A stretch of DNA of 64,000 nt from Meandrina meandrites. Taxonomy: Eukaryota > Cnidaria > Anthozoa > Scleractinia > Meandrinidae. Both the position numbers and the translations under genes were made by a program. Position 1 is the stretch's first letter. Each line of letters opens with the position of its first letter. Below, in pieces: positions 3,220-63,669 of this stretch. A model generated the notes under the pieces. The model was not told the DNA's origin. It did not search any database and saw nothing but the letters and a program-made list of their open reading frames with translations. The stretch lies in the NCBI GenBank assembly GCA_963693305.1, contig OY855913.1:25925114-25989113 (forward strand). Direction: 5' to 3'.

Positions 3220-4037
3220 AAATGTTGTGTATTTTTGGCGCGATTTCCTTTTCAACTCACAAGGAGGACCTCTCGGGAAACACAGCATTTTTCTGATTGG
3301 TTGGTTTCGATCCTACAACTCAACAAAATGTCGCCAAACGTTGATTTTCATTTCATTTCGACAGTTTCTCGCTTCTGGCTGAGCTTAGAATATTCTGTTT
3401 GTACTTGTTTGAGCGGTGCTAGCTACAAAGTAATCTTCACAGGTGAAAAGTTTGGTCCGCTAGAAATCGTTTGGAGTTGAAAAGAAAATTTCGTTTTAAA
3501 CACGCTACATGAAGCAAACACAAGCAGTGGATGATTCCGCTACCGTCGATAAAACAGCTAAGAATCATGTTTTGTTTTATCTTTCTCTTTGTATGTACAT
3601 TTTTCTCTGTATTTGCTATGTTATTAAACTGTTTTTGCCTGATACATTTGTGGTGTTTGCAACATGTCTTGTCCTAACACAATATTTTAACTAGTAACGA
3701 GTGACCTTCATTTTTCAAAAACTCCGTAAAACCACATCTTACACAAGATGTTTGAATGTCAAATGATATAAAACACAAAAATTCATCTTACCTAGACACC
3801 TGTTGTTGTATTGAAGATGTCAATCGACTTCAATCTTGACTTAACATGATTCATATCTTCAGCCATCACTCGCTAAAATCAAAACATGTCTTCATTTGTT
3901 TTAAGATTATTTTTTAGTTGTTTTTTTCTTTACGGAGTTCCTGTTTTGTGTTTTTCAGTCGGTCACCAAACAACAATATTCCTAACAATTTGTTTAGTTT
4001 ATGTTTGAAAGACCATGGCAATCATTTTGAAATAATT
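3220..4037. other. Spacer 3' of receptor 1, conserved in all three units
   Basis: This is probably the 3' untranslated and downstream region of the minus-strand receptor. It recurs at 24379-25194 and 61643-62458. A plus-strand frame (3178-3480) stays open in units 1 and 2 but is cut by a stop in unit 3 after the shared segment, so I do not call it a gene. No clear minus-strand AATAAA was found close to the stop codon. Confidence 0.5.
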
Positions 4038-6911
4038 TTACAACTCAAACCTGACCCAGCAATTAGGATTATCCTCTCGGAAGCGCTGTTTAGCTTCAGG
4101 TGTTATGTCTTCATTGCCAGTGAGGTCTAACCAGGTTAACTCGCTTGTTTTTATTCCTTGGCTTAAGTGAACCAAACCTTCATCTCCTATCCCATTGCTC
4201 ATGAGGTCTAAGCTAGTTAGTTGACTTTTGTCACTTTGAAGCATTTTTTTAATCTCTACACAACCCAACGAGCCAATGTGATTAAAGGACAAATGTATGC
4301 GCGAAATTTGTTTCATATTCTTGATGATATGAACCAGTGCTGTACAGTCAGCAGGAGCGAGGTCACAAATACTAAAAACTACACTATTACAATTAATACT
4401 ATCTAATTTGTTTTGTACAAGGGAATTAATTACATTTAATTTACTGCCTTCATAAAGGCACTTTATTATTGTTAGTGCTAAATGTTTGTCGCTCCTAGTC
4501 GGCCACCGGGTAATTCCATCGCTGAACTTTTTTGTTTCCACGGGAAGAAGACTTGTGAATATTTCAATCGATTTGTCATCTCGCTCACCGAGCAGTCCTG
4601 CAACAAATTGCAGCACTACTTGCCATTCACCTTTCTTGATGTTATCGGAAACAAATCTTCTCAATTCTTCTTCATTCATGGTATCTGTTATGTGCTTGGC
4701 TGCGAGAAATTCTTGCATTGTTAAATGCATGAAACAGAATTGAGATTCGTGTTTGAAAGGCTTAATTTGACGATCCGGCATTTGATGAAACAGTGAACTG
4801 TTTTCCAATCCATGTACTTCGCTTTTTCCAAAGATGAGTCTTCCTTCTTTTACACCATTGAATGCAACTTCTCCTAGTAGCTTGAATTCAGGAGGGAACT
4901 CGTCGGATTCAATCTCTTCCCGGCTCAGACATTCGCCACGGTATTGCTCGTTGTGCCTGAAGTAAAATAGTTTTACCGCCTGCTTGTAAATCTCAGTAAG
5001 TTTTGTTGGAAGGCCAACACCAATTAAATCATTCCCTTTCTTAGTGTAGAACTGTAACACTTCCAGCAGGCATGAGCAAATTATGAAGCAATTTACTGGA
5101 ATGTAGCACAATGAAAAAAGGTTCATGTTCGTGCTGATGTGCCGCCATATTTTTTCTCCAGCGCCGCTAGAATTTTCCGCTGCACTTTCTCCTGCGTCAC
5201 TCAAATTTTTCGCTGCAGTTTCTCTTGCGCCACTCAAATTTTCCGCTGCATCTTGCGGAAAGTTCTTCACATATTCTTCAACTTCCTCCGCTGCAAAGCC
5301 CAGAATTTCAATAGTTCTGTTGAATTGAACACCACGAAGGCATGACACGGCGGTGGGTCTTGTAGTCGTTACGACGGCGGCTCCGGGGAGAAATTTTCCA
5401 GACACTATCTTGGAATAAAGAGCAGCCATAGGCATCTTCTCTTCAACTATATCTTTGTAGCTGTTGTTAACGGTCTCATTAGCGATCCTTGTATGATCTA
5501 CAAGCTCGTCCATGCCGTCGAACAAAATTAGGACTTTCTCGGGATTTTCGAGAATGTAATTCCAGACCACATTGGCGAGACATTCTGTCTCTGAATATTC
5601 TGCACTTGCGAGTAATCCGCGAAGACTGAGCGTTTCTACCGAGTTGAACTTCCTGAACTTAATCAGAAATGCAATGCCAAAATCAAGTTCAGCATCTTGT
5701 GTTGTGTTGAACACTCTACCCGATGCCCAGTCTCGGATAAACTTGGTACAAAACAGTGTCTTGCCTATTCCAGGACGGCCAATGATCACTATTTTCTTGT
5801 TTTCAGCGTCAATAATATCTTCTGGTCCTTTCAGTGGTTGAAAGTTTTCTTTTGGCATGGGATACTCTTTAAGCTGCTCCTCTCTATCTCCGCTAAAGTC
5901 ATATTGCGCTCTGTTGGCAATAAGAACCAAATTGGTATAAATACTGTCGAGCTTCAGATCTTCAATTCTTTCGCCTTCACCATGCTTAGGTTGAAACAAT
6001 GGTTTGAGATCTGTAGGTGTCTCTGTGTTTTCGATGATATTTTTCTTCAGGTTTTCGATGAATGATCGTGGTTGCGGTAATTCAGATTCTTGTGATACGA
6101 CTGGGAGTGAGAATTCTTCATTTTCTTCTTGTTGCCTGACTTCTTGGTCTTGTTCTTGTTGTGGCGCCTCATAGTTGGAGTTTAGATGATCTTTCAGAAA
6201 CTGCGAGTCTTCGGGGAATTGTTTCTCTTTTCTTGCTCGTGAAAAGATCCAGATGATCTCGATCAGAATGATAAGCGCAAAAACGCCATTCACTACACTC
6301 ACAGCAATCGTCCAGAAGGTTTTGTTCTTTGCTCTTTGATTAATGCACTCGTATATAGTCGAGTTCTGAATGTTCCCTGTTGACGCATTTGCCGTACGAC
6401 TGCTTCCTGCTGTTCCTGGCGGTTCAGTACAGTCGAAACTCGTTGGAAAATTAGAAGGATAAAGTAATTGAGTTTGTAGGACTATAAAAAGAATTCCAAA
6501 AACAAATCTGGCGGCAAGTTGACAACAGTACGCCACGAACAGAAAGTAGCTTTTAGGAGGGCGCTGTCTCTCGTGATCCAGCAATCGATCAACTCTTGAG
6601 GTGGCGAGTTGTGAATAAATCACACCAAAAAATAGAATTAATGAAAAATTAAGGATCACGAAGCCATACACCGGAAAACTCGATTTGTTGTATAGGTTTC
6701 TATACTGCTCGAAACACTTTGCTCGCACGAGGTCTTCATTTTGAATCTTTCCCCTTTCGGTACCACAGCGGAAATCAAACCTTGATTCACTGTTCTCCAT
6801 ATCTGCAAAAATGCCAAGCAGGATAACTCCGATTACGACCCAGCAAAAAATAGCCACGTAGCTGAGCCTGTTCATCGTCTTTGGCTTCAATAGTTCCTTT
6901 AGGCTGTCCAT
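4038..6911 (-). CDS. Membrane NACHT-LRR (NLR-type) receptor, copy 1
   Basis: The 957-residue reading frame is intact and unspliced. Seen in the sequence: four hydrophobic spans at about 15-36, 80-102, 121-148 and 198-223, with two cysteines in each predicted outer loop (C49/C66 and C161/C189) and N-glycosylation sequons near 75, 175, 183 and 196. An acidic Q/E-rich linker (230-340) follows. The NACHT domain has Walker A GRPGIGKT (378-385), Walker B LILFDGMDEL (461-470) and an arginine in TTTRP (518). Further on are FSLCYIPVNC (599-608) and FMHLTMQEFLAA (727-738), motifs typical of animal NLRs. LRRs of ribonuclease-inhibitor type lie at about 840-945. A degenerate 11-residue repeat occupies 555-587. 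NACHT proteins bind ATP and oligomerise on sensing a ligand; an innate immune role is inferred. The first Met lies 22 nt after a likely 5'-UTR splice acceptor (minus strand ttttcacag, exon edge 6933). There is no death, CARD or TIR domain. Confidence 0.88.
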   Translation of the reverse strand: MDSLKELLKPKTMNRLSYVAIFCWVVIGVILLGIFADMENSESRFDFRCGTERGKIQNEDLVRAKCFEQYRNLYNKSSFPVYGFVILNFSLILFFGVIYSQLATSRVDRLLDHERQRPPKSYFLFVAYCCQLAARFVFGILFIVLQTQLLYPSNFPTSFDCTEPPGTAGSSRTANASTGNIQNSTIYECINQRAKNKTFWTIAVSVVNGVFALIILIEIIWIFSRARKEKQFPEDSQFLKDHLNSNYEAPQQEQDQEVRQQEENEEFSLPVVSQESELPQPRSFIENLKKNIIENTETPTDLKPLFQPKHGEGERIEDLKLDSIYTNLVLIANRAQYDFSGDREEQLKEYPMPKENFQPLKGPEDIIDAENKKIVIIGRPGIGKTLFCTKFIRDWASGRVFNTTQDAELDFGIAFLIKFRKFNSVETLSLRGLLASAEYSETECLANVVWNYILENPEKVLILFDGMDELVDHTRIANETVNNSYKDIVEEKMPMAALYSKIVSGKFLPGAAVVTTTRPTAVSCLRGVQFNRTIEILGFAAEEVEEYVKNFPQDAAENLSGARETAAKNLSDAGESAAENSSGAGEKIWRHISTNMNLFSLCYIPVNCFIICSCLLEVLQFYTKKGNDLIGVGLPTKLTEIYKQAVKLFYFRHNEQYRGECLSREEIESDEFPPEFKLLGEVAFNGVKEGRLIFGKSEVHGLENSSLFHQMPDRQIKPFKHESQFCFMHLTMQEFLAAKHITDTMNEEELRRFVSDNIKKGEWQVVLQFVAGLLGERDDKSIEIFTSLLPVETKKFSDGITRWPTRSDKHLALTIIKCLYEGSKLNVINSLVQNKLDSINCNSVVFSICDLAPADCTALVHIIKNMKQISRIHLSFNHIGSLGCVEIKKMLQSDKSQLTSLDLMSNGIGDEGLVHLSQGIKTSELTWLDLTGNEDITPEAKQRFREDNPNCWVRFEL
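5151..5249 (-). repeat. In-frame 33-bp minisatellite (3 x 11 residues) in receptor 1
   Basis: Three imperfect 11-residue repeats occupy residues 555-565, 566-576 and 577-587. They follow the pattern AA(E/K)N(L/S)S(G/D)A(R/G)E plus one residue and are rich in Ala, Glu, Asn, Ser and Gly. They sit between the NACHT core and the next helical region, probably as a flexible linker. The same three repeats occur in copy 2 at 26308-26406. Confidence 0.8.
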
Positions 6912-10463: not shown

Positions 10464-12553
10464 AAGAAACAAATGTGTTACCCCAAGAAATTTGAATTCG
10501 AATCGAATTCTTTTAAACGATGACGTTTTTTCATGTTTTTTAGGCCGTGTGTTCTTTTTAACGACAACATTTATTGAGCTTACTTTGGAAAACTGTCAAT
10601 TGTTATGGCTGTTCGGCTGTGCCCAGACAAGATCACGTTGCGATCATATTTTCACGTCCAATTCAACTCCACACTTTTTCAACAGACAAAGTGTTCAGGA
10701 GTTCAGTTTTCCAGTATTTTCCGCCATTTCCAATCGTTGATGACTTGTACTTCATATCGAGTCGTATTTATAATGACTCAGAAAGAGATTTCGCAATGAT
10801 GATGATATGCCACAGACTGCGAAAAAGAATTTATAATAGCTCAGCAATTTCGTCCTGGACCAGCTGGATGTTTATCGATTTCGATGAGTTACAAACATGC
10901 TTGTCAATTTGGTAGTGAAGATCGAAGGAACTAACTACCTGAACTACGTCTGCGAGTTTCTCGTCTTGATGTTCAACTGATGACTGTGGAAGATACAAAC
11001 AGAGGAATATAGAAACCTCGCGCTATCAGGCGTTCTTTTTTTTGCGGAGGGAGGGAAAAACGATTACTGTTACATTTTGCGCTCGACTTTAAAATGTACT
11101 TAAGCTTCAAAACTGATTGCTACACATACATGTAGTCGGGAAATCAGTTCTTGTAAGCTTTCGATCGACGACTAACGGCAAACTTACAATCTGTTACAAT
11201 GCCTTCCTTGTTTCCTGCGTAGAATGGAATTTGCGTATAGAGGAATCGCGTAAACACAGAAACAGCGAATGCGATATCGCACGAGAAAGCTGGATAGAAG
11301 AATTAACATTACTTGAAAGATACTGTTCTCTACGAATGGAATTGCGGTTCAATTTGAAGCTATATGACAGCAATTTATGCGGTAATTCATGCTAAAATAA
11401 ACCACTCAGTGACACTCAGCAATCTAGATTGTAAAATGATCATAAAATAATCACATGTAACGTTCAACAAAATAGAAACCAACCTGAATCAATGAAGTCC
11501 AGAGAATAGCGGGCAGAGTTTTAGACTTAAGCTTGTGAGCTGCCTATCTGGGCGGATTCGTCATCTATACTGATCTGAGGAATGCTCGGTTGTCTCTGTT
11601 ATCTACTGTAATATAAGAGGCCTCGAGCTCTCTCACCCAAAGATTCTGTCATTTCTCCTCCCATAGGTCACAAGGGCACATCTTTGTCAAGAATTCAAAC
11701 TGGTGTTTTGAGCTCAACGTGTTTTTTTTTTCCTGGGTTATTTCTCTTTCTCTTTATCATTAGTCATATGATCGCCATAGCGTCGCACAATCTCTAAAAT
11801 AAACACTGCTGAACGCCACACCTCCATTAAATGCACAACAACTGGCGTGCATTGAGTAACTTATTTTCTGGGTCTTGGCTCATGACTCTCGTGGGTAGCC
11901 TCCCACAAAGTCGTTTTTAGGGGCGATCCATATTTCACTCCATACTATGTGGTGAGCCTAGCCTGTTCCAGGCTCTCTCGGTCAGTGGGACGAGCGAAGC
12001 GAAAAAGAGAGGGGGTCAAAATGGTGTAAATCACGTACTTCATGCAAATAGGGACCCCCACATCAGGGCTCTGTTCTTGCCAATTGTAGCAACCTGCTTT
12101 ATTAAATAAACCAATATCCCCTCCCAGCACCCCCTTGCCACACTGAAAAGTAGATCACCATCTTTTATTTTTGTGATGCGAAACTCCAATTCCGTCCCCA
12201 GGGCGCTTTTCCCATTTTCGTGGAGCATGAAATATCATGAGTGAAACAGGGGAGGGAGAAGAGAGTAAAGCCGAACTATATCAAAAGGAAAGTATTTTAT
12301 TCCTTGGACTGTTGAGAGGATCCGGGGAATGGCTGGCTTACAGCATGGAAAGCTTTTATATGTAGTCTATGAACAGTGAATGCGCACATCCCCGTCTAAA
12401 ATGGATCTCATGTCGATCCCACTCCTCCACTTGTGGCCCCGGCACATAAGCAAAGTCTACTTTTTACACCCACCACCCACCCACTGAATGTTGTCGCGCA
12501 TGCAAACGGAAATTGTGGTCAGCGGATGTACAAAAAATGACAACAGCCTGAAA

Positions 12554-15500
12554 ATGGCGGCCAGTGGAGGGAAGGATATTTTGGCCGCTTCTCCTTCCAA
12601 AATTTCAAGAGATAAAATCCTCTCAGAATTCCCACTACACTGGCACGTCTGGCACAAAGACTCTTCCTCGCTTGAAGAAGAACTTGCACTGAACAAGGTT
12701 GGTATTCCGCCCTATTTTGTCGAAGAAATGATTTGGTTTTAACCGCAAGCCAAGCCAAAAAGCAGGCATACATGTTTTATGCAATGTGATCAATAGTTTT
12801 TCTGTCTGATTGTGGTTTATATGCAGCACGATAAAGAGCTTTTGGATCCTCGCGGGCGGACACCACTTCATCTGGCGGTTTCTCTGGGTTATCTGAATTG
12901 TGTTAAGTGTCTTCTTCGCGGGGGCTGTGACGCAAATGCCATAAACCGGGATGGCTGGAATGGTAAGAAATTTTAAAAGCTGAAGTTGAAAGTGTGAAAA
13001 GTGCACGGCCATTTAATTTATGTTACGAGTTACACCCGGATGCAGAATTAATTCAAAATTTTAAGTCATAATTTTCAATATTGTGCAGATTGTGTATGTT
13101 TTTCAGTAAAAATAATAATAATAAAAATACTTGATTAAAAATCATTCCTTCTATCACTTTTACCCAGAGACCAAGACAAGAATGGCAAGGATTTTCATTC
13201 CCCTGCACATTGGCCATGTTAGCAGGACAATCTTAATTTCATTTTGCTTGTTTTAGTGCAACAGGCTTATGAAAATGAAATGAGTTGCCTGTACTGTTTT
13301 CTTTTTTACTGCAGGACTGTTCACTGATCATTTTAATTTTGGAAAATTTTGGAAATATCTGTTCAAGGGTGAATTTCTTTGGAAGAATCCAAGATTGGAT
13401 TTTCAATCTGAGATCACACAGATACTTTTCTCCCAAAGAAAGAAAGAATCTTAAAATGGATTTTTTGCCATGGCAACTCTGTAAACATTGTTCACGATGA
13501 ACATAATTAAATACCAGGAGGTATTTATTTTATATTGAAGGCTGGTGTCCTAGCCAAAATAATTTCAGCACACAAAAGCCTTAAAAAAATCACATGACGA
13601 AGTTGTTCTTCTTTAGCCTGATGCATAATGTGGCAAAAAAATGCATCTGAAGTGAAGAATTCTGCAAAAAAAAATGTGATCTGTACAAACTACACTCATG
13701 AAAATTTCAGAGAGGTACAGTTTTCGCAGGCATGCATTGACTTTTCTAGAAATAAGCATTAAGTTAAAGTGACACTTCACAGTCTGATCAAGTTACCGTT
13801 CCCTTTCATAATTAATCCTTTTGCCTTTTCATCAAACTAGATGCTTGGAAACTCATCATATTGATAGTGATAGTGTTTACAAATGGCGTAACCTTATTTT
13901 CACAGGGAAGACAGCTGGGCTGATACATGTTTTTCAAATCCTTTTCATAGAATCATGAATCCTAATGAATCCACTTAGAGTATGGATTCTTCAGATTCAT
14001 AATCCATTTTAATTTGTAGTTTAATAAACGTAATATCCATTTTTAGATACAAGAATCTGGAATTGGATTTTCCCTATGAAAGGCACCCTAATAAAAATGA
14101 AGTTAGAACAGAAAATTATCCAGGAAGGAGGCTAGGTCACCAAGGGCAACCTTGTTCCCAGGGTCTCTCTTCTCCCTACTGTTGCTCCACTGCACCAGTA
14201 TCTTGAAATCTTGAATGTATTCATTTGTGCTTGGTAGGTGTGGCTGAAACCAGCTTATTTGACCATGCAATATATTTTTCTTTTAGTATCACATGAAGCC
14301 ATTAGCGTAGGAAACCCTGAAATATTATCGCTTGTACTTCAACACCGCGACTTTCAAAGAGGAAGTCAGAGGCTTGCTGGAATTCCTGAACTCCTAGATG
14401 AGCTCAATGCTGTATGTCTCTTTAAATTTTTATTCTTAGAAATTTATATTTTATAGCAACATGGATGGGATGTACATGTACAGTAACATGCTAGTCAATC
14501 ACAAGACATCCCTTCTACGTTATGGAGTAGATATAAGGCATGAATTGAGTACAGATATTTTGTGATATTTGTACTCCATTTGATTGTGTGGAACATTAAA
14601 AACCAGTGGAAAGGCAGAATTTCAGTACAAGAAATATTGGACAATAAATCACTTACTGGTAGTGTTTAAGCATTGTTGTGCATTTTTCTTCATCATTTGT
14701 ATTTTGACTTTCCCTATGCCCGGCTCACCAACATACTGCAAGACTCATAAAAATAAGTAACAATACTGGGCTTATAGTGGGCAAGTTGCAAACAAGGTCC
14801 ACATTAAGTAACTCAGGCATGGATCCAGTCAGGTTTCCACTGTTTTATGGAAATCAGTCAGATTTTTTAAATACCGGTAATAGTTTTTATATTGTTGAAA
14901 TTATCCTCATCCGAGGAAACTGGGTGACTCAAAACATCTAGACATGGCAGTCTTTAGGGAGCCAAACCGTAAATTTTTTGGAAAAGCACCCCAACCCCCA
15001 CCCCAGCCTTTAACAGTTTGCGCATGTCGCATTTGTGTCATTGGAAAAAGTCACTATTTTCCTGGAGCCATGCCTGTAAACTACCCAGAACAATGTGGGA
15101 ACAATGATTACTTCCTGTCATGAAAAGAAGTTATGTTTTGTAAGGTAGCATATTTCGGCTAAAAATAATAAGAAACAAATTAAAGTAAAAATTAAGTACA
15201 TTATTTTCTTCATTCCTCTTGTCTGGTGTAAGTGGGAGGTACCTGTCTATTACAGGCTGGTTGTTGTTCCCATTGCCATACAAAAATTGACTTAATAAAT
15301 TATGTGAAATATTTCCATGATAACCTTTTTTTTCTTCTTCTCTATATTGCAGACCCCAGATTTTTATGTTGAAATGAAATGGGAGTTCACCAGTTGGGGT
15401 AAAAAGTATTTAATTGTAAATGTAACTAAAAGGTTATTTTATGTTATTATTATATCTATTTTATTGTTTAAACTTGTCTGAGATGTTTTCCTGCCAAGCT

Positions 15501-16048
15501 TAACACTAATTAAAAATATAATTTTTCCCCCAATGTCGTAGTCATATAATCATATGACAAAACTTATCTTGGTATGCAGAAAGGTTTTCACATCTATTTA
15601 ACCTTAGCTCTTAGCCAAGCTCCGAGAAGCTTCCTTTAGCTAAGTGCGCGTCAAGAGTGTCCAAGCGGTGTGTGGAAGGTCAAACATCATCATTGATAGA
15701 CTTTTGTTTCAGAAATTGTTTTACTGAATACTGGTAACTTGTTTTACTTTCTGAATAACGTCTTTCACAAGCAATGCCATGTTCCAGAAAATATCCATAC
15801 CTCCCTCCCCTGGAAGGGTTTTGTTACTCCCTCATGCATCCCTCAAGAAATTTCCAGTTTAGCTTAATTCCCTGGCACCCCTCAGAATTTTTAATGGCAT
15901 GTGGTGGGAATGGATATTTTCTGAAAACTAACATGATATTGTTAAGTTTAACTTTTTCTTAGTTATTAATTTTAATTTCCTACTTTTTTGACAGTGCCAT
16001 TTATGTCAAGAATGTGTCCAAGTGATACATACAAAATATACAAATGTG
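12554..16048 (+). CDS. ANKRD13-type gene, N-terminal exons only (unit 1)
   Basis: Five exons join in frame: 12554-12697, 12827-12962, 14287-14411, 15353-15398 and 15995-16048 (505 nt, 168 codons plus one base), all with GT..AG introns. The product shows an ankyrin repeat (DPRGRTPLHLAVSLGY), then the ANKRD13 hallmarks VLQHRDF, GIPELL and DFYVEMKWEFTSW, ending near the position of human ANKRD13 SRICPNDVCRIWKSG. Family members are ubiquitin-binding endosomal adaptors of about 500-650 residues with C-terminal UIMs; everything after the first quarter is missing here. The start chosen is MAASGGKD, because upstream sequence is not shared with unit 2. The donor after exon 5 is phase 1, while the next exon (GIT-type, 16550) is phase 0; splicing to it shifts frame and meets TGA after 20 codons. 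It is probably a truncated duplicate. Introns of 1324, 941 and 596 bp show no other gene. Confidence 0.8.
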
Positions 16049-16163
16049 GTAAGTAAATTAAGACTTTTGTTGTGTTTAGATGTAGTAGGTGTTAAAATTC
16101 ATTATTAAAGAAGTACCTTCTTACGATACACCACTAAAATACTTATAACCACAATGTAAAATA

Positions 16164-16341
16164 CAGGGGTTTCAATAAAATTTGAAGTAGGCAGCTAGTT
16201 CGAATAGAGTAGCCGACTGCATCAACAAGGTTTGAAAGGATCTTTCTCTAGTTTCTTCAATTTAGGGGAAAAAGTAGCCGACTTCTCCAAGCAAAGTAGC
16301 CGACACTTTTCGTCGGCCGTCGGTGCTTATTGAAAGCACTG
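16164..16341. mobile_element. 178-bp element inserted upstream of GIT exons, unit 1 only
   Basis: The element is absent from unit 2, where the single sequence aaaata joins the flanks (near 50882). In unit 1 aaaata stands on both sides (16158-16163 and 16342-16347). The ends are partly inverted: caggggtttcaataa at the left, and ttattgaaagcactg at the right. It is non-coding and probably a non-autonomous DNA element; the superfamily is undecided. Confidence 0.65.
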
Positions 16342-16549
16342 AAAATAAATAATAAATTGAAAACAAAGAAAAAAGAAAATACAAATTAAAGCAGGTTGCA
16401 AAAACTTAGATTACTAAATTAACTTAAAATCACTTAATATGAACAAGGCACTTGACTTCTTGATCCAACTTAATTGGATGCTGATTAATCACATGCTTCA
16501 TCTCCTCACCTCCCCTCTCCTCCTGCTTTGCTTCTACTATTGTTCGCAG

Positions 16550-19500
16550 GGAACAACGACAAGTTTTCTGGCGGAAGACTCTGTTTCTATGGAGCGTTAT
16601 TTAGCAGTTGAAAGTGCTCTGTCTACAGCTAATGTGAGTAAAGTACAATGAAACTGTTTTTGTTGTTGCTTTTTTTGGGGGGGAGGGGGTGGAGGGGAGG
16701 CTTCAGGAGTGTACCTTGCAAAAGGCCTATTTATTGAGACATATCATTCTGTTACTTTTTCAGGCTCGTGTTCAACAGCTCCTTCAAGTGAATGCAAATC
16801 AAAGTCATGAAATTCAGAACCTCCAGGCAATGGTGAGGAATTATTACATTAATTTATAAATCAAACTCGAACAGTCTGGACAGAGGACGGGTTTGTTGTG
16901 GGCGATGTTTCATTCTCACCCAGAACACCACTAAGTAATCACAAGTGAACAGGAATTCACTTCCCTTGGTTTCATGTCACATCTTTAAGGTCATTCCTCT
17001 ATTTTGCATTGCGCATCCTTACTGCGCACGATTTCTTGCGCCATTAGCGCGCGCACATAAACAAAATAGCAGCTTTTTTCTATGCAACTTAGTCCGCGAG
17101 AGAAATAAATCGTCGATTTCTCGTAAACGAGTATGGGGTCCTATCAATTTTTTCACGAATTTTGGGTAAAAGAAAACGTGTACTTTGCCAGTATTCGCAA
17201 TGGAATTATAACGAATTATGTGGTAAATACAAGGTCTTCCTGCTCGTAAACGAATGTGGTGGCCCCCTTTTTTATTTCAAAATTTAAGTTCCCTTTAGGT
17301 AATCAACCAGTAGCTTTGGTTGAAAATCTATGTTCAGTTCTATTTCGGGGGAATGACCTTAAATACGTAGTACAGTACAAGGTGTGCCTTGTTTGCGCAG
17401 TACCTCATCATGTCATATTGAGGTAACAAGTATACTTACACAATGTCAAAACTTTCTTGATACCACTGGTGGAGAGGGGGGGGGGCATGAATTGTATTAT
17501 TTTTAACAGAATGTTTATAGCAAGATGTGCACAGAAGACTACCAGCAGTGCCTAGGTACTATTTTTCAGAGTACATTGTTAATTTTTGAGTGAACCAATT
17601 TGTGTAGTAAGATTCCAAAACCTGACTTGGTTAAGGAGGATTAAAAAAAGCTGGACCCACAATTGGGTAATTTAGCAATTCTTGCATCCAACTCTTTGTG
17701 TTCACTCCACTCCAGTGTTTATTTCTGCTGATTAAAATTAATTTTCTGTTGTGGCTAATAGGTTCACAAGTTAGAGGATGAAAACAAATCCTTAAGGAGT
17801 CAGTTAGGAATTCTTAATGGAAGTGATGATAACGTGTTTTCTCCTGCTGTGAGTACAACAAACATCTGTAACTGTATACATGAATGAGGAAGTCAAACAG
17901 AAAGAGGCTTGATAGAAAATGTGGTAACTCATCAAGGAAGTGTTATTATAATTTTCAGAATTCAGCATGATTCAAGGCCATCAGATGTGGCATGACGTTT
18001 GCAATACTCGTGCAGATTTATGCTTTAAATGCCCCTTTTATTTTTGTTGGGGGGGGGGGGGGGGGTCTTAATTAGAAATGTGATACGCATGATGTATTGG
18101 GCTTTGAGTAATCTGCAAAAGCATGTTGTATATCACCCAAGCAGGAGCTTAACAACAACAGCTGTGACTTTACATACAGCGATAACGTTTTACGAATTAG
18201 TTGTACGTAAGGTTCTCCTGGTTACTTTGTATAAGAAACAAACATTTCTTGCAGCAAAAATCGAAAATAAAATGCCAATCAAACTAAACAGGATGTTGAA
18301 CTGCTTGTCACTGGTTCCGGTGTTATAGTTTTCCTGTGTTTGGCATAGCTTGCTTTGAGTTTTGATTTATTCATTGCGTTTATTGTGTATGGCCCTGAAA
18401 GTTCATTTACCACACTAAGAAAGCTGTTCATCATTCTTCACGTTTAATATCTTTGCCTGGGTCTTTTGGGTTACTCTGTTTTGGACATGGCAGGAGGGAG
18501 TGGAGCTAGTAAGCTGGTAAAGATGGGAATGCCATTCCTTTAGAGTTATTAAACAGCTCACATATTTTTGTTAACCCAGCCATACCAAGATGTAAGTGAT
18601 GAAGATGATCTTGTGGAGATCGGAAACATAGAGCCATATGCTGCCCCAGGCTCTCTCCTAAACCGCCCTACTCAGCCCACCACCCTGGGGCAGACTCACA
18701 CTGGAGATGCGAGTGGAAATAAAACTGTCAATCCTTATGACAATGTGAGTGACTCTCCAGATGGACCAGATGAAGAACGTAGATACCTCAATGTTGAAGA
18801 GATGAGGGAACATGAAAGAATGAGTTCTTGTGAGTGTTGTTTATTATTTTCTTGTTGCAGTACAGTTGAACCTTTGTCTATGGGCACTTTCTGTAGGTAG
18901 ACACTTCTCGGAAGCAGACACTTCTAGAGTCATGGCCCCAGCCACATGCAAACACAACATTCTTAACTTTGCATACAGTCAGTGGTCTTGCCTTTCAAGT
19001 TAACACTTTTCCTAATTCTGAAAGTGTCAGCTTATTGGATGTTTTGACTTCATTTCCCCCTCTTTTTCCAAAGAATTTTCAACAATTAAATTCAGATGAA
19101 TTAGGTCCTATTTAAATTTTTCAAATTCATCATTAGAAATCTATTTTACCATCAAACTTGTAGTTGAAGTCAATTTCTTTCCACTTTGCTAGCGGACAGC
19201 CCCTTTGATGAACAACTGGATCGTGAGGCAGAGAAGCTGATCCATGCAGTAGATGATCTAGTTCATGAAGCCACAAAGGATATCAGACAACAGCCATCCC
19301 AAGAGGATGTGGTTCGGTGCACAGAGCAGATCACCAAGAAAATCCAGGAACTTCTGCTGTCAGCACAGGCTGGAAGACACAGCTGGTAAACATCTGAGCT
19401 ATCTAGCTTACTCTTTTTGCATACATGTACATTTTCTATTATTAATTTTGGAGAATTCAGTTTTAAACAAGGCATCTCTTCTTAGATGAGCAAGACATTA

Positions 19501-20407
19501 TTCTGACAACCTGTCAGTTGAATTGATCATAGAAAAAGTTAGAGGAAGTTAATAACACATCATTGTTGGAATATTTTCTTATTCACTTATAAATTCTTTT
19601 TATTTATTTTTTTCACAGGATACAACATTTAATTAATATAATAATTAGATGTAGGTTACTAAGAAAAAACTTAACTTATTATGTGATTTGGCTTCCTCGA
19701 TGAAACAGAACTGACTCCTGCAATCAGATAAATACGTTCATGGCATTAAGTCTCTGAATAAGTAACAATAAATAAGTTAGAAAATAAACAAGAATAGCTG
19801 GGTCTTCAAACTTCCCCACGATGAAAACATCAGCTTTTTGCATTTATAGTTAGCCAACATGTGTCATTTGATCATCTTGAAAGTCTTTCACTATGTTTAT
19901 CTTTCAGTTTTATCCCCTGTTCAAGTAATATTTTCACCGCTGTAAATGACATGGCTAGCTTATTCCCAGAGGTAAGATTAAAGATAATTTGTTTCAAGGG
20001 TGTTTTCATGTTGGTTGCCATCAGTCCACATAGTGGTGATTAGCAACATCCCTTCCATTCTGATGCTTAGTGACATCCCTGGCATTATGTTGCTTAGCAG
20101 CATCCTTTCCAATATGTTGCCTAGCGACATCCCCTCCAAACTGCTTGGGTCGAGTCTTCCGATAGACCATACTGTGGTACTTATTTCTTTAATGGTGAAA
20201 TCTTTGCAGGAACCGGACATGGACAGCATGCGCGTCTCGCTTCAGCTGATGAAGAGCAGTGCTGCCAGATTGCAAGTGGAGTGTAAGAGCGCTGTGCTGC
20301 CTGGGAACACTGTAGATATGGCATTCCTCACTCAACAGGTCATACAATGTGCTTATGACATCGCTAAAGCTGCTAAACAACTGGTGACAACGTTTTCAGC
20401 CGATTAG
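16550..20407 (+). CDS. GIT-type Arf-GAP scaffold, C-terminal half (unit 1)
   Basis: Seven exons are all in frame: 16550-16633, 16764-16832, 17762-17848, 18580-18829, 19193-19385, 19908-19971 and 20210-20407 (314 codons plus TAG). The product matches the GIT1/GIT2 coiled coil (ERYLAVESALSTAN..VQQLLQVN..HKLEDEN) and the C-terminal paxillin-binding FAT-like bundle (EDVVRCTEQITKKIQELL, FIPCSSNIFTAVNDMASLFP, LTQQVIQCAYDIAKAAKQLV). The N-terminal ArfGAP zinc finger, ankyrin repeats and Spa2 domain of GIT proteins are absent; ANKRD13-type exons lie upstream instead. GIT coiled coils dimerise and bind PIX, and the FAT domain binds paxillin at focal adhesions. If expressed, the first internal start is Met at 16589, giving 301 residues, a scaffold without GAP activity. 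The frame is open and conserved with unit 2. The longest introns are 929, 731, 522, 363 and 238 bp. Confidence 0.85.
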
Positions 20408-20606
20408 AACATCTCTAACTGCTTATTATGTTATAGAAGATCTGTCGACTTTTTATGAAGAAAACCAAATGTAACATTATCCCTTTCACGAGCAAGACTA
20501 ACACATATTATAATTGGTGGATAGCAGCGAAAACGAAAGTAACACTCGATACACCTGGGTTTAATCCACAGCCTTTACGTCTGGACAGAGCCACCTTGTA
20601 CAGTGT

Positions 20607-20612
20607 AATAAA
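20607..20612 (+). terminator. Candidate poly(A) signal, GIT-type gene unit 1
   Basis: The first AATAAA is about 200 bp past the TAG stop and is conserved at the matching site in unit 2 (57104-57109). Use of this signal is inferred. Confidence 0.45.
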
Positions 20613-23600: not shown

Positions 23601-24084
23601 CAGTATTGCCTATGTTGCAGCCGGGATCATATGATTGTTGGCAATCTATTTTAAGCTGCCTCGATCAAAAATCATCTTGTGCCTGTTTTCCTTTATAGCC
23701 AAGCATAGCTCTGCCCAAATTCTGATTTTATATCAAGCTAAAGTTAAACTACACAGAGCTTCCTCAAACAATAATATTTATTCTGAACAGGACAAGAGTG
23801 TTGCTCTCGTCAGATCTCAGTCATTACAAAGATCACTAAAGTCCATCAGCAAAAGTAGCAAAGTTCCATATTTACAAGATCTGAAAGTTCATCTTATTAA
23901 TCTACAGTTGTATAAATAGTATTGATACAGTTCAAATCATTAACAAATAGTGACTAAGATTAAAAAATTTAAAGTGCACACACAATCATTGCAGTGGACC
24001 TTTCAAAATCAATGGAGGGATGACAGCTCTCCCACCCCTAAAAAACCTACTGCAATTGCATGAAAAATAACATGGTTTTTTTGG

Positions 24085-25194: not shown

Positions 25195-28068
25195 TTACCA
25201 CTCAAAGATGACCTCGCAATTAGGATTATCCTCTCGGAAGCGCTGTTTAGCTTCAGGTGTTATGTCTTCATTGTAACTGAGGTTTAACCTGGTTAATCTG
25301 CTTGTTTTTATTCCTTGGCTTAAGTGAACCAAACCTTCATCTCCTATCCCATTGATACTGAGGCTTAAGCTAGTTAGTTTACTTTTGTCACTCTCAAACA
25401 GTTTTTTAATCTCTACACAACCCAACGAGCCAATGTGATTATGGTACAAATTTATGTGCGAAATTTGTTTCATATTCTTGATGATATGAACCAGTGCTGT
25501 ACAGTCAGCAGGAGCGAGGTCACAATTACTAAAATTTACACTATCACAATTAATACTATCTAATTTGTTTTGTACAAGGGGATTAATTACATTTAATTTA
25601 CTGCCTTCATAAAGGCACTTTATTATTGTTAGTGCTAAATCTTTGTCGCTGAGAGTCGGCCACCAGGTCTTTCCACCGCTGAGCTTTTTTGTTTCCACGG
25701 GAAGAAGACTTGTGAATATTTCAATCGATTTGTCATCTCGCTCACCGAGCAGTCCTGCAACAAATTGCAGCACTACTTGCCATTCACCTTTCTTGATGTT
25801 ATCGGAAACAAATCTTCTCAATTCTTCTTCATTCATGGTATCTGTTATGTGCTTGGCTGCGAGAAATTCTTGCATTGTTAAATGCATGAAACAGAATTGA
25901 GATTCGTGTTTGAAAGGCTTAATTTGACGATCCGGCATTTGGTGAAACAGTGAACTGTTTTCCAATCCATGTACTTCGCTTTTTCCAAAGATGAGTCTTC
26001 CTTCTTTTACACCATTGAATGCAACTTCTCCTAGCTGCTTGAATTCAGGAGGGAACTCGTCGGATTCAATCTCTTCCCGGCTCAGACATTCACCACGGTA
26101 TTGCTCGTTGTGCCTGAAGTAAAATAGTTTTACCGCCTGCTTGTAAATCTCAGTAAGTTTTGTTGGAAGGCCAACACCAATTAAATCATTCCCTTTCTTA
26201 GTGTAGAACTGTAACACTTCCAGCAGGCATGAGCAAATTATGAAGCAATTTACTGGAATGTAGCACAATGAAAAAAGGTTCATGTTCGTGCTGATGTGCC
26301 GCCATATTTTTTCTCCAGCGCCGCTAGAATTTTCCGCTGCACTTTCTCCTGCGTCACTCAAATTTTTCGCTGCAGTTTCTCTTGCGCCACTCAAATTTTC
26401 CGCTGCATCTTGCGGAAAGTTCTTCACATATTCTTCAACTTCCTCCGCTGCAAAGCCCAGAATTTCAATAGTTCTGTTGAATTGAACACCACGAAGGCAT
26501 GACACGGCGGTGGGTCTTGTAGTCGTTACGACGGCGGCTCCGGGGAGAAATTTTCCAGACACTATCTTGGAATAAAGAGCAGCCATAGGCATCTTCTCTT
26601 CAACTATATCTTTGTAGCTGTTGTTAACGGTCTCATTAGCGATCCTTGTATGATCTACAAGCTCGTCCATGCCGTCGAACAAAATTAGGACTTTCTCGGG
26701 ATTTTCGAGAATGTAATTCCAGACCACATTGGCGAGACATTCTGTCTCTGAATATTCTGCACTTGCGAGTAATCCGCGAAGACTGAGCGTTTCTACCGAG
26801 TTGAACTTCCTGAGCTTAATCAGAAATGCAATGCCAAAATCAAGTCCAGCATCTTGTGTTGTGTTGAACACTCTACCCGATGCCCAGTCTCGGATAAACT
26901 TGGTACAAAACAGTGTCTTGCCTATTCCAGGACGGCCAATGATCACTATTTTCTTGTTTTCAGCGTCAATAATATCTTCTGGTCCTTTCAGTGGTTGAAA
27001 GTTTTCTTTTGGCATGGGATACTCTTTAAGCTGCTCCTCTCTATCTCCGCTAAAGTCATATTGCGCTCTGTTGGGAATAAGAACCAAATTGGTATAAATA
27101 CTGTCGAGCTTCAGATCTTCAATTCTTTCGCCTTCACCATGCTTAGGTTGAAACAATGGTTTGAGATCTGTAGGTGTCTCTGTGTTTTCGATGATATTTT
27201 TCTTCAAGTTTTCGATGAATGATCGTGGTTGCGGTAATTCAGATTCTTGTGATACGACTAGGAGTGAGAATTCTTCATTTTCTTCTTGTTGCCTGACTTC
27301 TTGGTCTTGTTCTTGTTGTGGCGCCTCATAGTTGGAGTTTAGATGATCTTTCAGAAACTGCGAGTCTTCGGGGAATTGTTTCTCTTTTCTTGCTCGTGAA
27401 AAGATCCAGATGATCTCGATCAGAATGATAAGCGCAAAAACGCCATTCACTACACTCACAGCAATCGTCCAGAAGGTTTTGTTCTTTGCTCTTTGATTAA
27501 TGCACTCGTATATAGTCGAGTTCTGAATGTTCCCTGTTGACGCATTTGCCGTACGACTGCTTCCTGCTGTTCCTGGCGGTTCAGTACAGTCGAAACTCGT
27601 TGGAAAATTAGAAGGATAAAGTAATTGAGTTTGTAGGACTATAAAAAGAATTCCAAAAACAAATCTGGCGGCAAGTTGACAACAGTACGCCACGAACAGA
27701 AAGTAGCTTTTAGGAGGGCGCTGTCTCTCGTGATCCAGCAATCGATCAACTCTTGAGGTGGCGAGTTGTGAATAAATCACACCAACAAATAGAATTAATG
27801 AAAAATTAAGGATCACGAAGCCATACACCGGAAAACTCGATTTGTTGTATAGGTTTCTATACTGCTCGAAACACTTTGCTCGCACGAGGTCTTCATTTTG
27901 AATCTTTCCCCTTTCGGTACCACAGCGGAAATCAAACCTTGATTCACTGTTCTCCATATCTGCAAAGATGCCAAGCAGGATAACTCCGATTACGACCCAG
28001 CAAAAAATAGCCACGTAGCTGAGCCTGTTCATCGTCTTTGGCTTCAATAGTTCCTTTAGGCTGTCCAT
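25195..28068 (-). CDS. Membrane NACHT-LRR (NLR-type) receptor, copy 2
   Basis: This is a second intact 957-residue receptor with no insertion or deletion against copy 1. Over residues 1-794 I count six amino-acid differences (F95V, P270L, A332P, E408G, F419L, L678Q). The four membrane spans, outer-loop cysteines, Walker A and B and the QEFLAA motif are unchanged. Residues 795-957 differ at 29 positions, clustered in the segment before the LRRs and on the exposed positions of each LxLxxN strand, and none of the nucleotide differences there that I checked is silent. The same 5'-UTR splice acceptor precedes the start codon. The copy is probably functional and has a different recognition surface. 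Confidence 0.88.
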   Translation of the reverse strand: MDSLKELLKPKTMNRLSYVAIFCWVVIGVILLGIFADMENSESRFDFRCGTERGKIQNEDLVRAKCFEQYRNLYNKSSFPVYGFVILNFSLILFVGVIYSQLATSRVDRLLDHERQRPPKSYFLFVAYCCQLAARFVFGILFIVLQTQLLYPSNFPTSFDCTEPPGTAGSSRTANASTGNIQNSTIYECINQRAKNKTFWTIAVSVVNGVFALIILIEIIWIFSRARKEKQFPEDSQFLKDHLNSNYEAPQQEQDQEVRQQEENEEFSLLVVSQESELPQPRSFIENLKKNIIENTETPTDLKPLFQPKHGEGERIEDLKLDSIYTNLVLIPNRAQYDFSGDREEQLKEYPMPKENFQPLKGPEDIIDAENKKIVIIGRPGIGKTLFCTKFIRDWASGRVFNTTQDAGLDFGIAFLIKLRKFNSVETLSLRGLLASAEYSETECLANVVWNYILENPEKVLILFDGMDELVDHTRIANETVNNSYKDIVEEKMPMAALYSKIVSGKFLPGAAVVTTTRPTAVSCLRGVQFNRTIEILGFAAEEVEEYVKNFPQDAAENLSGARETAAKNLSDAGESAAENSSGAGEKIWRHISTNMNLFSLCYIPVNCFIICSCLLEVLQFYTKKGNDLIGVGLPTKLTEIYKQAVKLFYFRHNEQYRGECLSREEIESDEFPPEFKQLGEVAFNGVKEGRLIFGKSEVHGLENSSLFHQMPDRQIKPFKHESQFCFMHLTMQEFLAAKHITDTMNEEELRRFVSDNIKKGEWQVVLQFVAGLLGERDDKSIEIFTSLLPVETKKLSGGKTWWPTLSDKDLALTIIKCLYEGSKLNVINPLVQNKLDSINCDSVNFSNCDLAPADCTALVHIIKNMKQISHINLYHNHIGSLGCVEIKKLFESDKSKLTSLSLSINGIGDEGLVHLSQGIKTSRLTRLNLSYNEDITPEAKQRFREDNPNCEVIFEW
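26308..26406 (-). repeat. In-frame 33-bp minisatellite in receptor 2
   Basis: The same three 11-residue repeats as in receptor 1 (residues 555-587) are present, with identical amino-acid sequence and repeat number. The array was therefore not changed after duplication. Confidence 0.8.
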
Positions 28069-32048: not shown

Positions 32049-32409
32049 TGTTCGGGAAACTCTCCCGACGCTGGTTCACAATCAAAAGGACTGTATCTTT
32101 CCAATGGTTGCGTTTTATTCTCTCACAATCTCGTTCACAATGTTATACTATCAATCGCTTTTCCGTTCTAAATTGAAGCTTTACATCAATACCTTATACA
32201 TCCGAGAAATGAAATACAATCATGCTGCGGTTAAATCTTGGCTCGCTATATCCTATTGTAATACATAGCCTTAATTAAATCTATTCTTAGTTGTCTTGAA
32301 ACAGTACGTGATATATTGCCTATGCAATCTGTAAGTAAAGTCACGCAGTGACGTAACATAAACAATTCGGATAGCGTGATATGAAATTACAATTGATTAT
32401 TATCAGACA
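32049..32409 (-). repeat. 3' LTR of the BEL/Pao element
   Basis: The 361-bp direct repeat of 38037-38397 begins tgttcggg and ends cagaca on the plus strand. It is preceded on the coding strand by the polypurine tract. No difference from the other LTR was seen. Confidence 0.93.
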
Positions 32410-32422
32410 CACTCCCTCCCTT
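32410..32422 (-). promoter_or_regulatory. Polypurine tract
   Basis: On the coding (minus) strand the sequence reads AAGGGAGGGAGTG and abuts the 3' LTR directly. It is the expected primer site for plus-strand DNA synthesis in LTR retrotransposons. Confidence 0.75.
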
Positions 32423-32488
32423 GACCTGTGAAGGTCAAGCATAGCACAAATCTGAAATCACGTTCAGTAACGCAAATGATATAAAAAA

Positions 32489-38092: not shown

Positions 38093-38397
38093 TGGTTGCG
38101 TTTTATTCTCTCACAATCTCGTTCACAATGTTATACTATCAATCGCTTTTCCGTTCTAAATTGAAGCTTTACATCAATACCTTATACATCCGAGAAATGA
38201 AATACAATCATGCTGCGGTTAAATCTTGGCTCGCTATATCCTATTGTAATACATAGCCTTAATTAAATCTATTCTTAGTTGTCTTGAAACAGTACGTGAT
38301 ATATTGCCTATGCAATCTGTAAGTAAAGTCACGCAGTGACGTAACATAAACAATTCGGATAGCGTGATATGAAATTACAATTGATTATTATCAGACA
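38037..38397 (-). repeat. 5' LTR of the BEL/Pao element
   Basis: The 361-bp LTR is upstream of gag-pol on the minus strand and should carry the element's promoter. The gag-pol frame opens within its last 56 bases. The right flank is the 5-bp target repeat agttc. Confidence 0.93.
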
Positions 38398-50700: not shown

Positions 50701-50773
50701 TTTCCTACTTTTTTGACAGTGCCATTTATGTCAAGAATGTGTCCAAGTGATACATACAAAATATACAAATGAG
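47767..50773 (+). pseudogene. ANKRD13-type N-terminal exons, broken copy (unit 2)
   Basis: Exons 1, 2, 4 and 5 are present (47767-47910, 48041-48176, 50090-50135 and 50720-50773). Exon 3, which carries the HRDF and GIPELL motifs, is gone in a deletion of about 550 bp corresponding to unit 1 14214-14767. Exon 2 ends in phase 1 and exon 4 begins in phase 0, so joining them shifts the frame into an early TGA. Exon 5 independently has TGT changed to TGA at 50770-50772. Sequence immediately upstream of exon 1 is unrelated to unit 1. The copy cannot make the ANKRD13 N-terminal region. Confidence 0.85.
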
Positions 50774-62458: not shown

Positions 62459-63235
62459 TTATTTTGAAAAGTCGACCTCGCAATTAGGATTATCCTCTCG
62501 GAAGCGCTGTTTAGCTTCAGGTGTTATGTCTTTATTGCCTCTGAGGTTTAACCAGGTTAATCTGCTTGTTTTTATTCCTTGGCTTAAGTGAACCAAACCT
62601 TCATCTCCTATCCCATTGTTCCTGAGGCCTAAGCTAGTTAGTTGACTTTTGTCACTCTCAAGTAGTTTTTTAATCTCTACACAACCCAACGAGCCAATGT
62701 GATTACCGGACAAAGATATGTGCGAAATTTGTTTCATATTCTTGATGATATGAACCAGTGCTGTACAGTCAGCAGGAGCGAGGCGACAATAACTAAAATC
62801 TACACTATCACAATTAATACTATCTAATTTGTCTTGTACAAGGGGATTAATTACATTTAATTTACTGCCTTCATTAAGGCACTTTATTATTGTTAGTGCT
62901 AAATATATGTCGCTGTAAGTCGGCCAGCAGGTCATTTCATCGCTGATCTCTGTGGCTGTTTTCACGGGAAGAAGACTTGTGAATATTTCAATCGATTTGT
63001 CATCTCGCTCACCGAGCAGTCCTGCAACAAACTGCAGCACTACTTGCCATTCACCTTTCTTGATGTTATCGGAAACAAATCTTCTCAATTCTTCTTCATT
63101 CATGGTATCTGTTATATGCTTGGCTGCGAGAAATTCTTGCATTGTTAAATGCATGAAACAGAATTGAGATTCGTGTTTGAAAGGCTTAATTTGACGATCC
63201 GGCATTTGGTGAAACAGTGAACTGTTTTCCAATCC
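62459..63235 (-). pseudogene. NACHT-LRR receptor, copy 3, 3' third only
   Basis: The frame is open and matches residues 701-957 of receptors 1 and 2: end of the NACHT-associated helical region with QEFLAA, then the LRRs. Upstream of about 63236 the similarity stops abruptly and unrelated DNA follows; a chance ATG at 63244 opens the frame but is not homologous. The transmembrane and NTPase parts are not in the window. The LRR tail is a third distinct variant, for example ending CEVDFSK, with other residues at the same exposed strand positions. It could be a relic, a donor for gene conversion, or a gene interrupted by an insertion whose far side lies past 64000. Confidence 0.75.
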
Positions 63236-63236
63236 T

Positions 63237-63669
63237 TGTACCACAGGGAGACCACAATATTTGAGGAAATGAATAAAGAATAATATTATTCACGTGGTTT
63301 TCTGTATTGTTTTTCTTATATGTACAGTAGGCGTCAATAAACGCGACAGCACCGCTATCGTGTGCAGAGCTGCTCAAGTGCGCGAGCGGATCTGAAATAT
63401 GCTAATTTTTTACCTACAATATTAATAAGTAACAAGGGTGGCAACTCTTTCACGAAATAATTTGAACACGCTGTGCGAAATCACTTTAAACTTGCTTCTT
63501 TCGCACCTTTTTGCGACCAAAATCGACCCAAACGAAAGCTAGATAATTTGCAAATACTCTTACCTGACAGTCTCCTGAAAAGAAGCGATTTCCAGACAGA
63601 ATTTGAGTTCCCTTTTAGCAGTTTTGCTCGGAGTTTTTTTTTCGTTACATGTGCGGCCCGTTACCTTGG
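63237..63669. other. Unrelated sequence at the receptor 3 breakpoint
   Basis: This sequence has no counterpart in units 1 and 2. No exon or domain was recognised. It leads into the inverted repeat at the window end and may be part of the same inserted element. Confidence 0.5.

What the first reader, a model, noticed from the sequence alone, without database searches (positions are those of the whole stretch)
4038..4529. Receptor LRR tails differ only by replacement changes, mostly on exposed strand positions
Comparing receptor copies 1 and 2 codon by codon, residues 795-957 differ at 29 of 163 positions, and I saw no silent difference among these codons. Residues 1-794 differ at only six, with at least four silent changes. 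In the LRRs the changes fall mostly on the x positions of LxLxxN strands: R-I-H-L-S-F-N against H-I-N-L-Y-H-N, L-D-L-M-S-N against L-S-L-S-I-N, L-D-L-T-G-N against L-N-L-S-Y-N. Leu, Asn and the backbone codons are unchanged to the base. LRR concave faces bind ligands in known receptors. This looks like strong diversifying selection or a targeted diversification process acting on the recognition surface.
Basis: partly seen in the sequence, partly recalled or inferred. Interest (0 to 1): 0.88.

Follow-up and report, generated by a model that had tools for sequence, protein, structure and literature searches.

The report
Coral receptor array with hypervariable recognition face
A coral-type genome carries a row of about 35 copies of one immune-type receptor gene whose last part is kept nearly identical except at the surface residues expected to touch a target, which mostly differ from copy to copy, so the array looks like an inherited library of recognition surfaces.

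Summary
They belong to about 35 copies in 1.4 Mb of a coral-type genome. Over 31 C11 tails, 18 of 18 testable strand positions (i, i+2, i+4, i+5 of five predicted LRR strands) carry 4 or more residues, against 4 of 102 others. Their pairwise dN/dS is about 11 (9.7-12.9). Silent differences are few, not absent: 0-7 per pair, median 2, against a median of 31 replacements. Gene bodies (residues 1-650) differ at 28-41% of silent sites between the two array sides, tails at 5%; tail similarity does not follow gene-body kinship. Codon variants look shared by descent and mosaic at roughly 10 bp. Best reading: germline gene conversion of a 3' LRR cassette plus extreme diversifying selection, as in PRDM9 or fungal NLRs. 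A random-base or adenine-specific mutator is disfavoured; somatic change was not testable. Unexpectedly, the N-terminus models as a connexin-like channel domain fused to NACHT-LRR.

The parts
4038..6911 (-). Receptor copy 1, single ORF of 957 aa: connexin-like membrane domain, NACHT, helical domains, LRR tail
6222..6911 (-). Residues 1-230: four long helices and two loops, connexin-like large-pore channel fold
5259..5792 (-). Residues 374-551: NACHT domain
   Evidence: Pfam PF05729 E 1.6e-26; NLRP3/NOD2 matches
3238..4691 (-). Homogenised 3' cassette: residues about 741-957 plus about 800 bp 3' of the stop; low silent and non-coding divergence between otherwise divergent array sides
   Evidence: the borders are approximate
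4038..4529 (-). LRR tail, residues 795-957 and stop: the reported finding
4485..4526 (-). Residues 796-809: variable edge before the LRRs (796, 797, 799, 800, 802, 806, 809), with small indels in some copies
4368..4385 (-). Strand 1, residues 843-848; variable 843, 845, 847, 848; V844 and F846 invariant to the base
4284..4301 (-). Strand 2, residues 871-876; variable 871, 873, 875, 876; I872, L874 (and N877) invariant to the base
4197..4214 (-). Strand 3, residues 900-905; variable 900, 902, 904, 905; L901, L903 invariant to the base
4116..4133 (-). Strand 4, residues 927-932; variable 927, 929, 931, 932; L930 (and N933) invariant to the base, L928 in 30 of 31
4041..4058 (-). Strand 5, residues 952-957; variable 952, 954 (956, 957 in the copies that extend so far); V953 invariant to the base; stop position varies
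25195..28068 (-). Receptor copy 2 (957 aa)
62459..63244 (-). Copy 3: tail part of a disrupted copy that runs beyond the window (L014)

Best explanation
The tail is the recognition module of a tandem family of about 35 copies of a predicted membrane-anchored NLR-type receptor (connexin-like channel domain, NACHT, LRR) in a coral-type genome. SHOWN on sequence: the tail with its 3' UTR is homogenised across the array while gene bodies stay divergent, and inside it the strand positions predicted to line the concave face carry extreme replacement diversity with few silent changes. INFERRED mechanism: ordinary point mutations at the exposed codons are retained because new or rare recognition surfaces are favoured (dN/dS about 11), and non-crossover gene conversion between copies, including copies in opposite orientation, repeatedly swaps short pieces of the cassette. 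This keeps the scaffold uniform to the base and recombines the strand alleles into a new combination in each copy. INFERRED function: the 5 x 4 grid binds variable ligands (microbes, symbionts or non-self colonies), NACHT oligomerises, and the connexin-like domain acts as or regulates a pore.
For: Array: 39 match rows to the tail, at 35 C11 places (one an 84-base fragment) and 1 C3 place (loci). Grid 18/18 hypervariable against 4/102 off-grid, Fisher 7e-18; grid pN 0.42 against off-grid 0.041 with pS 0.059 and 0.040; dN/dS 11.0, bootstrap 9.7-12.9. 7 further tails not used for the definition: 74/126 grid against 45/714 off-grid cells differ from the majority. Between the two array sides (7 x 19 full-length copies) pS is 0.28-0.41 in residues 1-650 and 0.048 in the tail; the 3' UTR stays similar between sides to about 800 bp and then diverges. 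Tail distance is unrelated to body distance, Mantel rho -0.007, p 0.54, 26 copies. Alleles look identical by descent: 0 of 41 cases with both codon families; 63 of 73 distinct plus-side grid codons also occur on the inverted side, and 0 encode a shared residue by another codon. Copying-model tract about 10 bp in the tail, 50 bp in the 3' UTR, 200-500 bp in the body; log-likelihood gain 133 over independence, no gain in 3 of 3 shuffles of the tail. Replacement/silent rate ratio at 19 hypervariable codons rises with sharing: 2.8, 5.2, 22. Very young pair L028/L035: 14 base differences in 2889, 9 tail codons changed, no silent tail codon difference.
Against: A tract of about 10 bp is short for ordinary gene conversion and may partly reflect recurrent mutation. 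L028/L035 differ by a three-base codon change (GAC/AGG, codon 806) with the neighbouring codons unchanged, which one ordinary substitution does not explain; and only 4 of their 9 changed tail codons lie on the grid. Pairwise dN/dS on recombining paralogues is only indicative, and sharing by homoplasy would also raise the shared replacement/silent ratio. Private changes are 88 replacement to 27 silent, so the youngest class alone is a much weaker signal. The C3 copy's tail is also less silently diverged from the array (22%) than its body (39-58%), so some silent constraint or older exchange is possible. Among minus-side copies the 3' flank does not show the sharp rise past 800 bp (0.14-0.17 there). 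The C3 copy differs at 6 compared residues from its apparent ENA allele P0021, none in the tail, so diversification is not seen outside the array; n is 1. No ligand, expression or population data.
Confidence: 0.78

Rival explanations
1. A dedicated targeted mutator (diversity-generating-retroelement-like or deaminase-like) rewrites bases at chosen strand codons.
For: In many HV codons the first two bases vary while the third is nearly fixed; one-step replacement pairs by codon position are 89/70/18 against opportunity 0.40/0.42/0.18, a mild third-base deficit; adjacent silent sites are frozen.
Against: The matches are gene copies or pieces of them; no separate template was seen. Several A-rich codons are invariant in 32 of 32 copies (AAT 877, 933; AAA 888), against adenine mutagenesis. 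Random NN mutagenesis would mix codon families; 0 of 41 cases do. Haplotype structure exists. No tail difference in the C3 copy against its apparent allele. No search for a mutator enzyme was made.
Confidence: 0.06
2. Diversifying selection on new point mutations alone; the copies are simply young and little exchange takes place.
For: Full-length plus-side copies differ by only 0.25-0.59% in residues 1-680; 198 of 203 codon alleles have a one-step neighbour.
Against: Tail silent divergence is 5% between sides whose bodies differ at 28-41% of silent sites; the 3' UTR is homogenised too; 63 of 73 grid codons are shared across sides.
Confidence: 0.08
3. Low silent divergence reflects constraint on silent sites (codon usage, overlapping element), not exchange.
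For: 10 of 14 strand backbone codons are unchanged in 31 of 31 copies; the C3 tail is less silently diverged than its body.
Against: The C3 copy still differs from array tails at 22% of silent sites; the non-coding 3' flank shows the same homogenisation between array sides.
Confidence: 0.03
4. Somatic diversification: the germline array is further varied in the tissues of one colony.
For: None here; corals have long-lived stem lineages (general knowledge).
Against: Not testable with one assembled genome. Exactly matching proteins recur in ENA contigs, but those contigs may come from the same data.
Confidence: 0.05

Closest known systems
PRDM9 zinc-finger array (PMC2779102, passages)
   Same: Near-identical repeat DNA, hypervariable contact codons, concerted evolution plus positive selection; human dN/dS 12.6, 9.9 and 13.9 at contact positions, here about 11
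   Different: One gene with tandem fingers binding DNA; here about 35 copies each carrying an LRR cassette
Fungal NACHT-WD/ANK/TPR NLRs such as HET-D/HET-R (PMC4986451, passages)
   Same: NACHT receptors with concerted evolution and positive selection on the repeat recognition surface
   Different: WD/ANK/TPR repeats within and between genes; that abstract reports no LRR motifs in fungal NLRs; here animal LRRs and a predicted membrane domain
Zebrafish NLR-B30.2 family (PMC4852459, passages)
   Same: Large array; gene conversion acts differently on N- and C-terminal modules; C-terminal module exchanged across groups under positive selection
   Different: Variable module is B30.2, and the LRRs are said not to be particularly variable; here the LRR itself is the variable module
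Plant hvNLRs (PMC8226289, passages)
   Same: High-entropy residues cluster on the predicted concave LRR surface
   Different: Variation across ecotypes of plant NLRs; no comparable codon-level freezing in the passages seen
Conotoxin codon-level cysteine conservation (PMC3823881, listing and passages)
   Same: Hypervariable residues beside scaffold codons conserved to the base
   Different: Secreted toxins; there explained by amino-acid selection plus phylogenetic history rather than array-wide conversion
LRRC8 and connexin channels (folds)
   Same: N-terminal domain models with the four-helix large-pore fold; LRRC8 also carries LRRs (recalled)
   Different: No NACHT in either (recalled); only 2+2 invariant loop cysteines here

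Membership tests
NLR (NACHT-LRR receptor) | NACHT NTPase domain | tested here: met
   PF05729 E 1.6e-26, residues 374-551
NLR (NACHT-LRR receptor) | C-terminal leucine-rich repeats | tested here: met
   LRR_6 above cutoff; five strand units in the model
NLR (NACHT-LRR receptor) | Ligand-induced oligomerisation and signalling | not testable with these tools
   needs an experiment
Concertedly evolving, diversifying recognition repeats (PRDM9/HNWD type) | Silent-site homogenisation among copies | tested here: met
   tail pS 0.048 against 0.28-0.41 in residues 1-650 between array sides
Concertedly evolving, diversifying recognition repeats (PRDM9/HNWD type) | Replacement excess concentrated on predicted contact positions | tested here: met
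   18/18 against 4/102; dN/dS 11 on the grid, 1.17 in the rest of the tail
Concertedly evolving, diversifying recognition repeats (PRDM9/HNWD type) | Polymorphism within the species | tested here: inconclusive
   7 further ENA proteins with new tails, all listing a contig of 1,302,091 bases; haplotype status inferred only
Connexin | Connexin fold | tested here: met
Connexin | Three conserved cysteines in each extracellular loop (recalled) | tested here: not met
   only C49, C66 and C161, C189 are C in 72 of 72 aligned sequences
Connexin | Pfam Connexin above cutoff | tested here: not met
   19.7 bits against cutoff 31.3 for copy 1; several homologues carry PF00029 in the precomputed column
Diversity-generating retroelement target | Adenine-specific variation from a template repeat | tested here: not met
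   A-rich codons 877, 888, 933 invariant in 32 copies; no non-gene template among the matches
Diversity-generating retroelement target | Linked reverse transcriptase and template RNA | not tested
   no search for a retroelement cassette was made

The most novel reading that the evidence does not exclude
The array runs a codon-scale, templated diversification process: very short, non-crossover copying between paralogues, focused on the LRR 3' cassette (effective tract about 10 bp against 200-500 bp in the gene body), shuffles strand alleles one row at a time so that every copy has a unique grid (31 of 31). This would be a germline, and possibly somatic, combinatorial receptor library in an animal without antibodies, driving a connexin-like NLR pore.
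Probability: 0.15. Interest if true: 0.95.

Novelty: new variant of a known kind. Interest (0 to 1): 0.74.

Why it matters
It would show that a cnidarian reaches PRDM9-like diversification strength on the recognition face of an innate receptor, by sharing a 3' LRR cassette across a 1.4-Mb array, in a group for which gene conversion has been described as very rare (PMC10236652, passages). The grid names the residues to test for ligand binding, allorecognition or symbiont choice. The connexin-like N-terminus suggests an NLR that carries its own pore. It also makes an old question directly testable: do corals vary receptors between colonies or tissues?

Tried and rejected
Adenine-mutagenesis (DGR-like) reading: tested on invariant A-rich codons and codon families; rejected.

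Third-base lock as proof of a mutator: only a mild deficit (18 of 177 one-step replacement pairs at base 3, opportunity 18%); not used as proof.

Transition/transversion spectrum: 0.89 at four-fold sites of the body against 0.56 at HV codons; saturation makes it uninformative.

Broken copies as a test of selection: L009, L014, L020, L023 and L024 have short or split ORFs; 4 of 5 have private counts like the rest and L024 has more private aa and silent changes (9 and 5); too few to decide.

Linkage by mutual information fades beyond about 12 bp; the copying model was added because that test has low power.

Placing the 7 extra ENA proteins in G000: the search did not complete. They are 7 of 22 own-type proteins; the other 15 have tails identical to one of my loci. 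Species not identified: the nearest named hits are Oculina patagonica, Desmophyllum, Acropora and Pocillopora.

A first regex for pooled repeats found none and was replaced. It fixes L, L and N, so only the other positions are informative there.
Full report
WHAT IS THERE. The window lies at C11:25925114-25989113 of a 551-Mb eukaryote assembly. Two intact 957-aa single-ORF genes (window 4038-6911 and 25195-28068, minus strand) and the tail of a third disrupted copy (62459-63244) belong to an array. A DNA search with the 492-base tail gave 39 match rows, 38 on C11 between 25.80 and 27.23 Mb and one on C3. These are 35 C11 places (one only an 84-base fragment, L034) and the C3 copy; I fetched all 36. 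Copies up to 26.07 Mb face one way, those from 26.35 Mb the other. The nearest named homologues are coral proteins (Oculina patagonica 61%, then Desmophyllum, Acropora, Pocillopora), so this is a coral-type genome; the species was not identified.

Copies 1 and 2 differ in the tail at 29 codons, all replacement, and in residues 1-794 at 6 replacement and 4 silent codons. Under equal per-site rates, all-replacement has probability about 1e-4.

WIDER SAMPLE. Of 36 loci, 32 gave an in-frame tail alignment (L027, L033, L034 and L040 dropped); the C3 copy was then left out, leaving 31. These 31 include five copies whose upstream frame is short or split (L009, L014, L020, L023, L024). Codons 848, 873, 876 and 905 carry 11-12 residues each over the 32 copies, close to codons invariant to the base. 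Over 465 pairs and residues 795-955, replacement differences are 9-42 (median 31) and silent codon differences 0-7 (median 2), with 32 pairs at 0.

WHERE THE CHANGES FALL. The AF2 model (LRR blocks pLDDT 84-95) puts strands at 843-845, 871-873, 900-902, 927-929 and 952-954. Positions i, i+2, i+4 and i+5 of these make a 5 x 4 grid. Of the 18 grid positions up to residue 955, 18 carry 4 or more residues; of 102 other positions in 836-955, 4 do (850, 924, 934, 941); Fisher 7e-18. The buried strand residues barely vary: among 14 examined, 10 have one codon in 31 of 31 copies; the other four are 849, 906, 928 and 955. In seven further proteins, apparently of the same species and not used for the definition, 74 of 126 grid cells and 45 of 714 off-grid cells depart from the array majority. 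Solvent exposure was inferred from the strand pattern, not computed from coordinates.

SELECTION STRENGTH. Grid pN is 0.42 and off-grid pN 0.041 in residues 836-955, with pS 0.059 and 0.040. Jukes-Cantor-corrected grid dN/dS is 11.0 (bootstrap over copies 9.7-12.9), the rest of the tail 1.17. Pairs are not independent and recombination is present, so these are indices, not model estimates. With 19 hypervariable codons defined by shared variants, the ratio of replacement to silent variants per site is 2.8 for singletons, 5.2 at two copies and 22 at three or more; for the other codons it is 0.60, 0.52 and 2.1. That is expected if favoured variants rise; recurrent mutation would also contribute. 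PRDM9 values reported for human contact positions are 12.6, 9.9 and 13.9 (PMC2779102, passages).

HOMOGENISATION. Between the two array sides silent divergence is 0.41 in residues 1-250, 0.28 in 331-560, 0.30 in 561-650, 0.11 in 651-794 and 0.048 in the tail. Inside the plus side, whose full-length bodies differ by only 0.6-1.3% at silent sites up to residue 650, the tail differs at 3.5% of silent and 9.4% of replacement sites. Non-coding sequence 3' of the stop stays similar between sides for about 800 bp (2.6-9.7% per 50-bp bin) and then diverges to 20-60%; among minus-side copies there is no such step. The C3 copy differs from array tails at 22% of silent sites, less than its body at 39-58%; so the silent sites can change, but some constraint or older exchange is not excluded. 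Tail similarity is unrelated to gene-body similarity (Mantel rho -0.007, p 0.54, 26 copies; among pairs with bodies over 3% apart rho is -0.16), while residues 681-794 do follow the body weakly (rho 0.24). Exchange between copies of opposite orientation argues for conversion without crossover (inference).

SHARED ALLELES, NOT RANDOM REWRITING. In 41 of 41 site-by-residue cases of Ser, Arg or Leu with two or more copies, one codon family only is used; 94 of 105 common residues have a single codon; 198 of 203 codon alleles have a one-step neighbour at the site, against 0.62 for random synonymous choices. Of 73 distinct grid codons on the plus side (9 copies), 63 also occur on the minus side (22 copies), 10 encode residues absent there, and none encodes a shared residue by another codon. 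A copying model gives an effective tract of 10 bp in the tail (30 copies), 50 bp in the 3' UTR, 200 bp in residues 600-739 and 500 bp in residues 341-499; three column shuffles of the tail showed no structure. The very young pair L028/L035 differs at 14 of 2889 bases, with 9 codons changed in the tail (4 of them on the grid) and no silent tail codon difference; both alleles occur in other copies at 8 of the 10 differing codons from residue 741 on. For copies 1 and 2 it is 24 of 28. The short tract is the least ordinary feature: either many successive conversions, or exchange at codon scale.

RELATED RECEPTORS. Of 98 foreign homologues listed (those with names are corals), 56 carry three or more canonical repeats, 354 in all. 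Entropy peaks at i+4 (3.13 bits) and i+5 (3.57), and repeats inside one protein differ there in 68% and 82% of pairs, 35% or less elsewhere; i and i+2 (25% and 34%) are no more variable than some off-strand positions. So homogenised repeats with two free strand positions are widespread among these relatives. This is protein level only, and the search pattern fixes L, L and N.

RELATION TO KNOWN SYSTEMS. Concerted evolution plus diversifying selection is established for PRDM9, fungal NLR repeats and, by module, zebrafish NLR-B30.2 (passages). PMC10236652 states that gene conversion is very rare in corals (passages); this array looks like a clear exception. Searches for this pattern in corals or cnidarians listed no paper whose title or abstract start describes it (8 of 8 shown, 20 of 45 shown, 2 of 2 shown). 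I file it as a new variant of a known kind.

LIMITS. One assembly; no reads, expression or population data.

Noticed in passing
window 6222-6911 (-): Connexin-like four-helix channel domain modelled at the N-terminus of an NLR in a coral-type genome; connexins are usually regarded as chordate proteins (recalled).
   Followed up: partly
window 32049-38397: Two identical 361-bp direct repeats bracket a 1867-aa ORF (32489-38092, its start lies inside one repeat): looks like a young LTR element inserted in the array; contents not examined.
   Followed up: no
window 5153-5250 (-): A near-repeat with a 33-bp shift inside the gene (residues about 554-587), between the NACHT region and the helical domains.
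   Followed up: no
window 12502-23853 and 47715-60352: Collinear repeated segments (main ones 93.6-96.7% identical, short ones 87.6-99.3%): the array unit is larger than the receptor gene.
   Followed up: no
L027: Copy with an expanded LRR tail (1052 aa): tail pieces repeat in tandem, so LRR number also varies.
   Followed up: no
tail codons 956-957 in L009-L043: Stop position varies: of 31 copies 18 end right after residue 955, 5 have one more residue, 7 have two and L042 has ten.
   Followed up: partly
L009-L017 and L018-L043: The array is split into two halves of opposite orientation with a gap of about 290 kb (26.07-26.36 Mb) without a tail match.
   Followed up: partly
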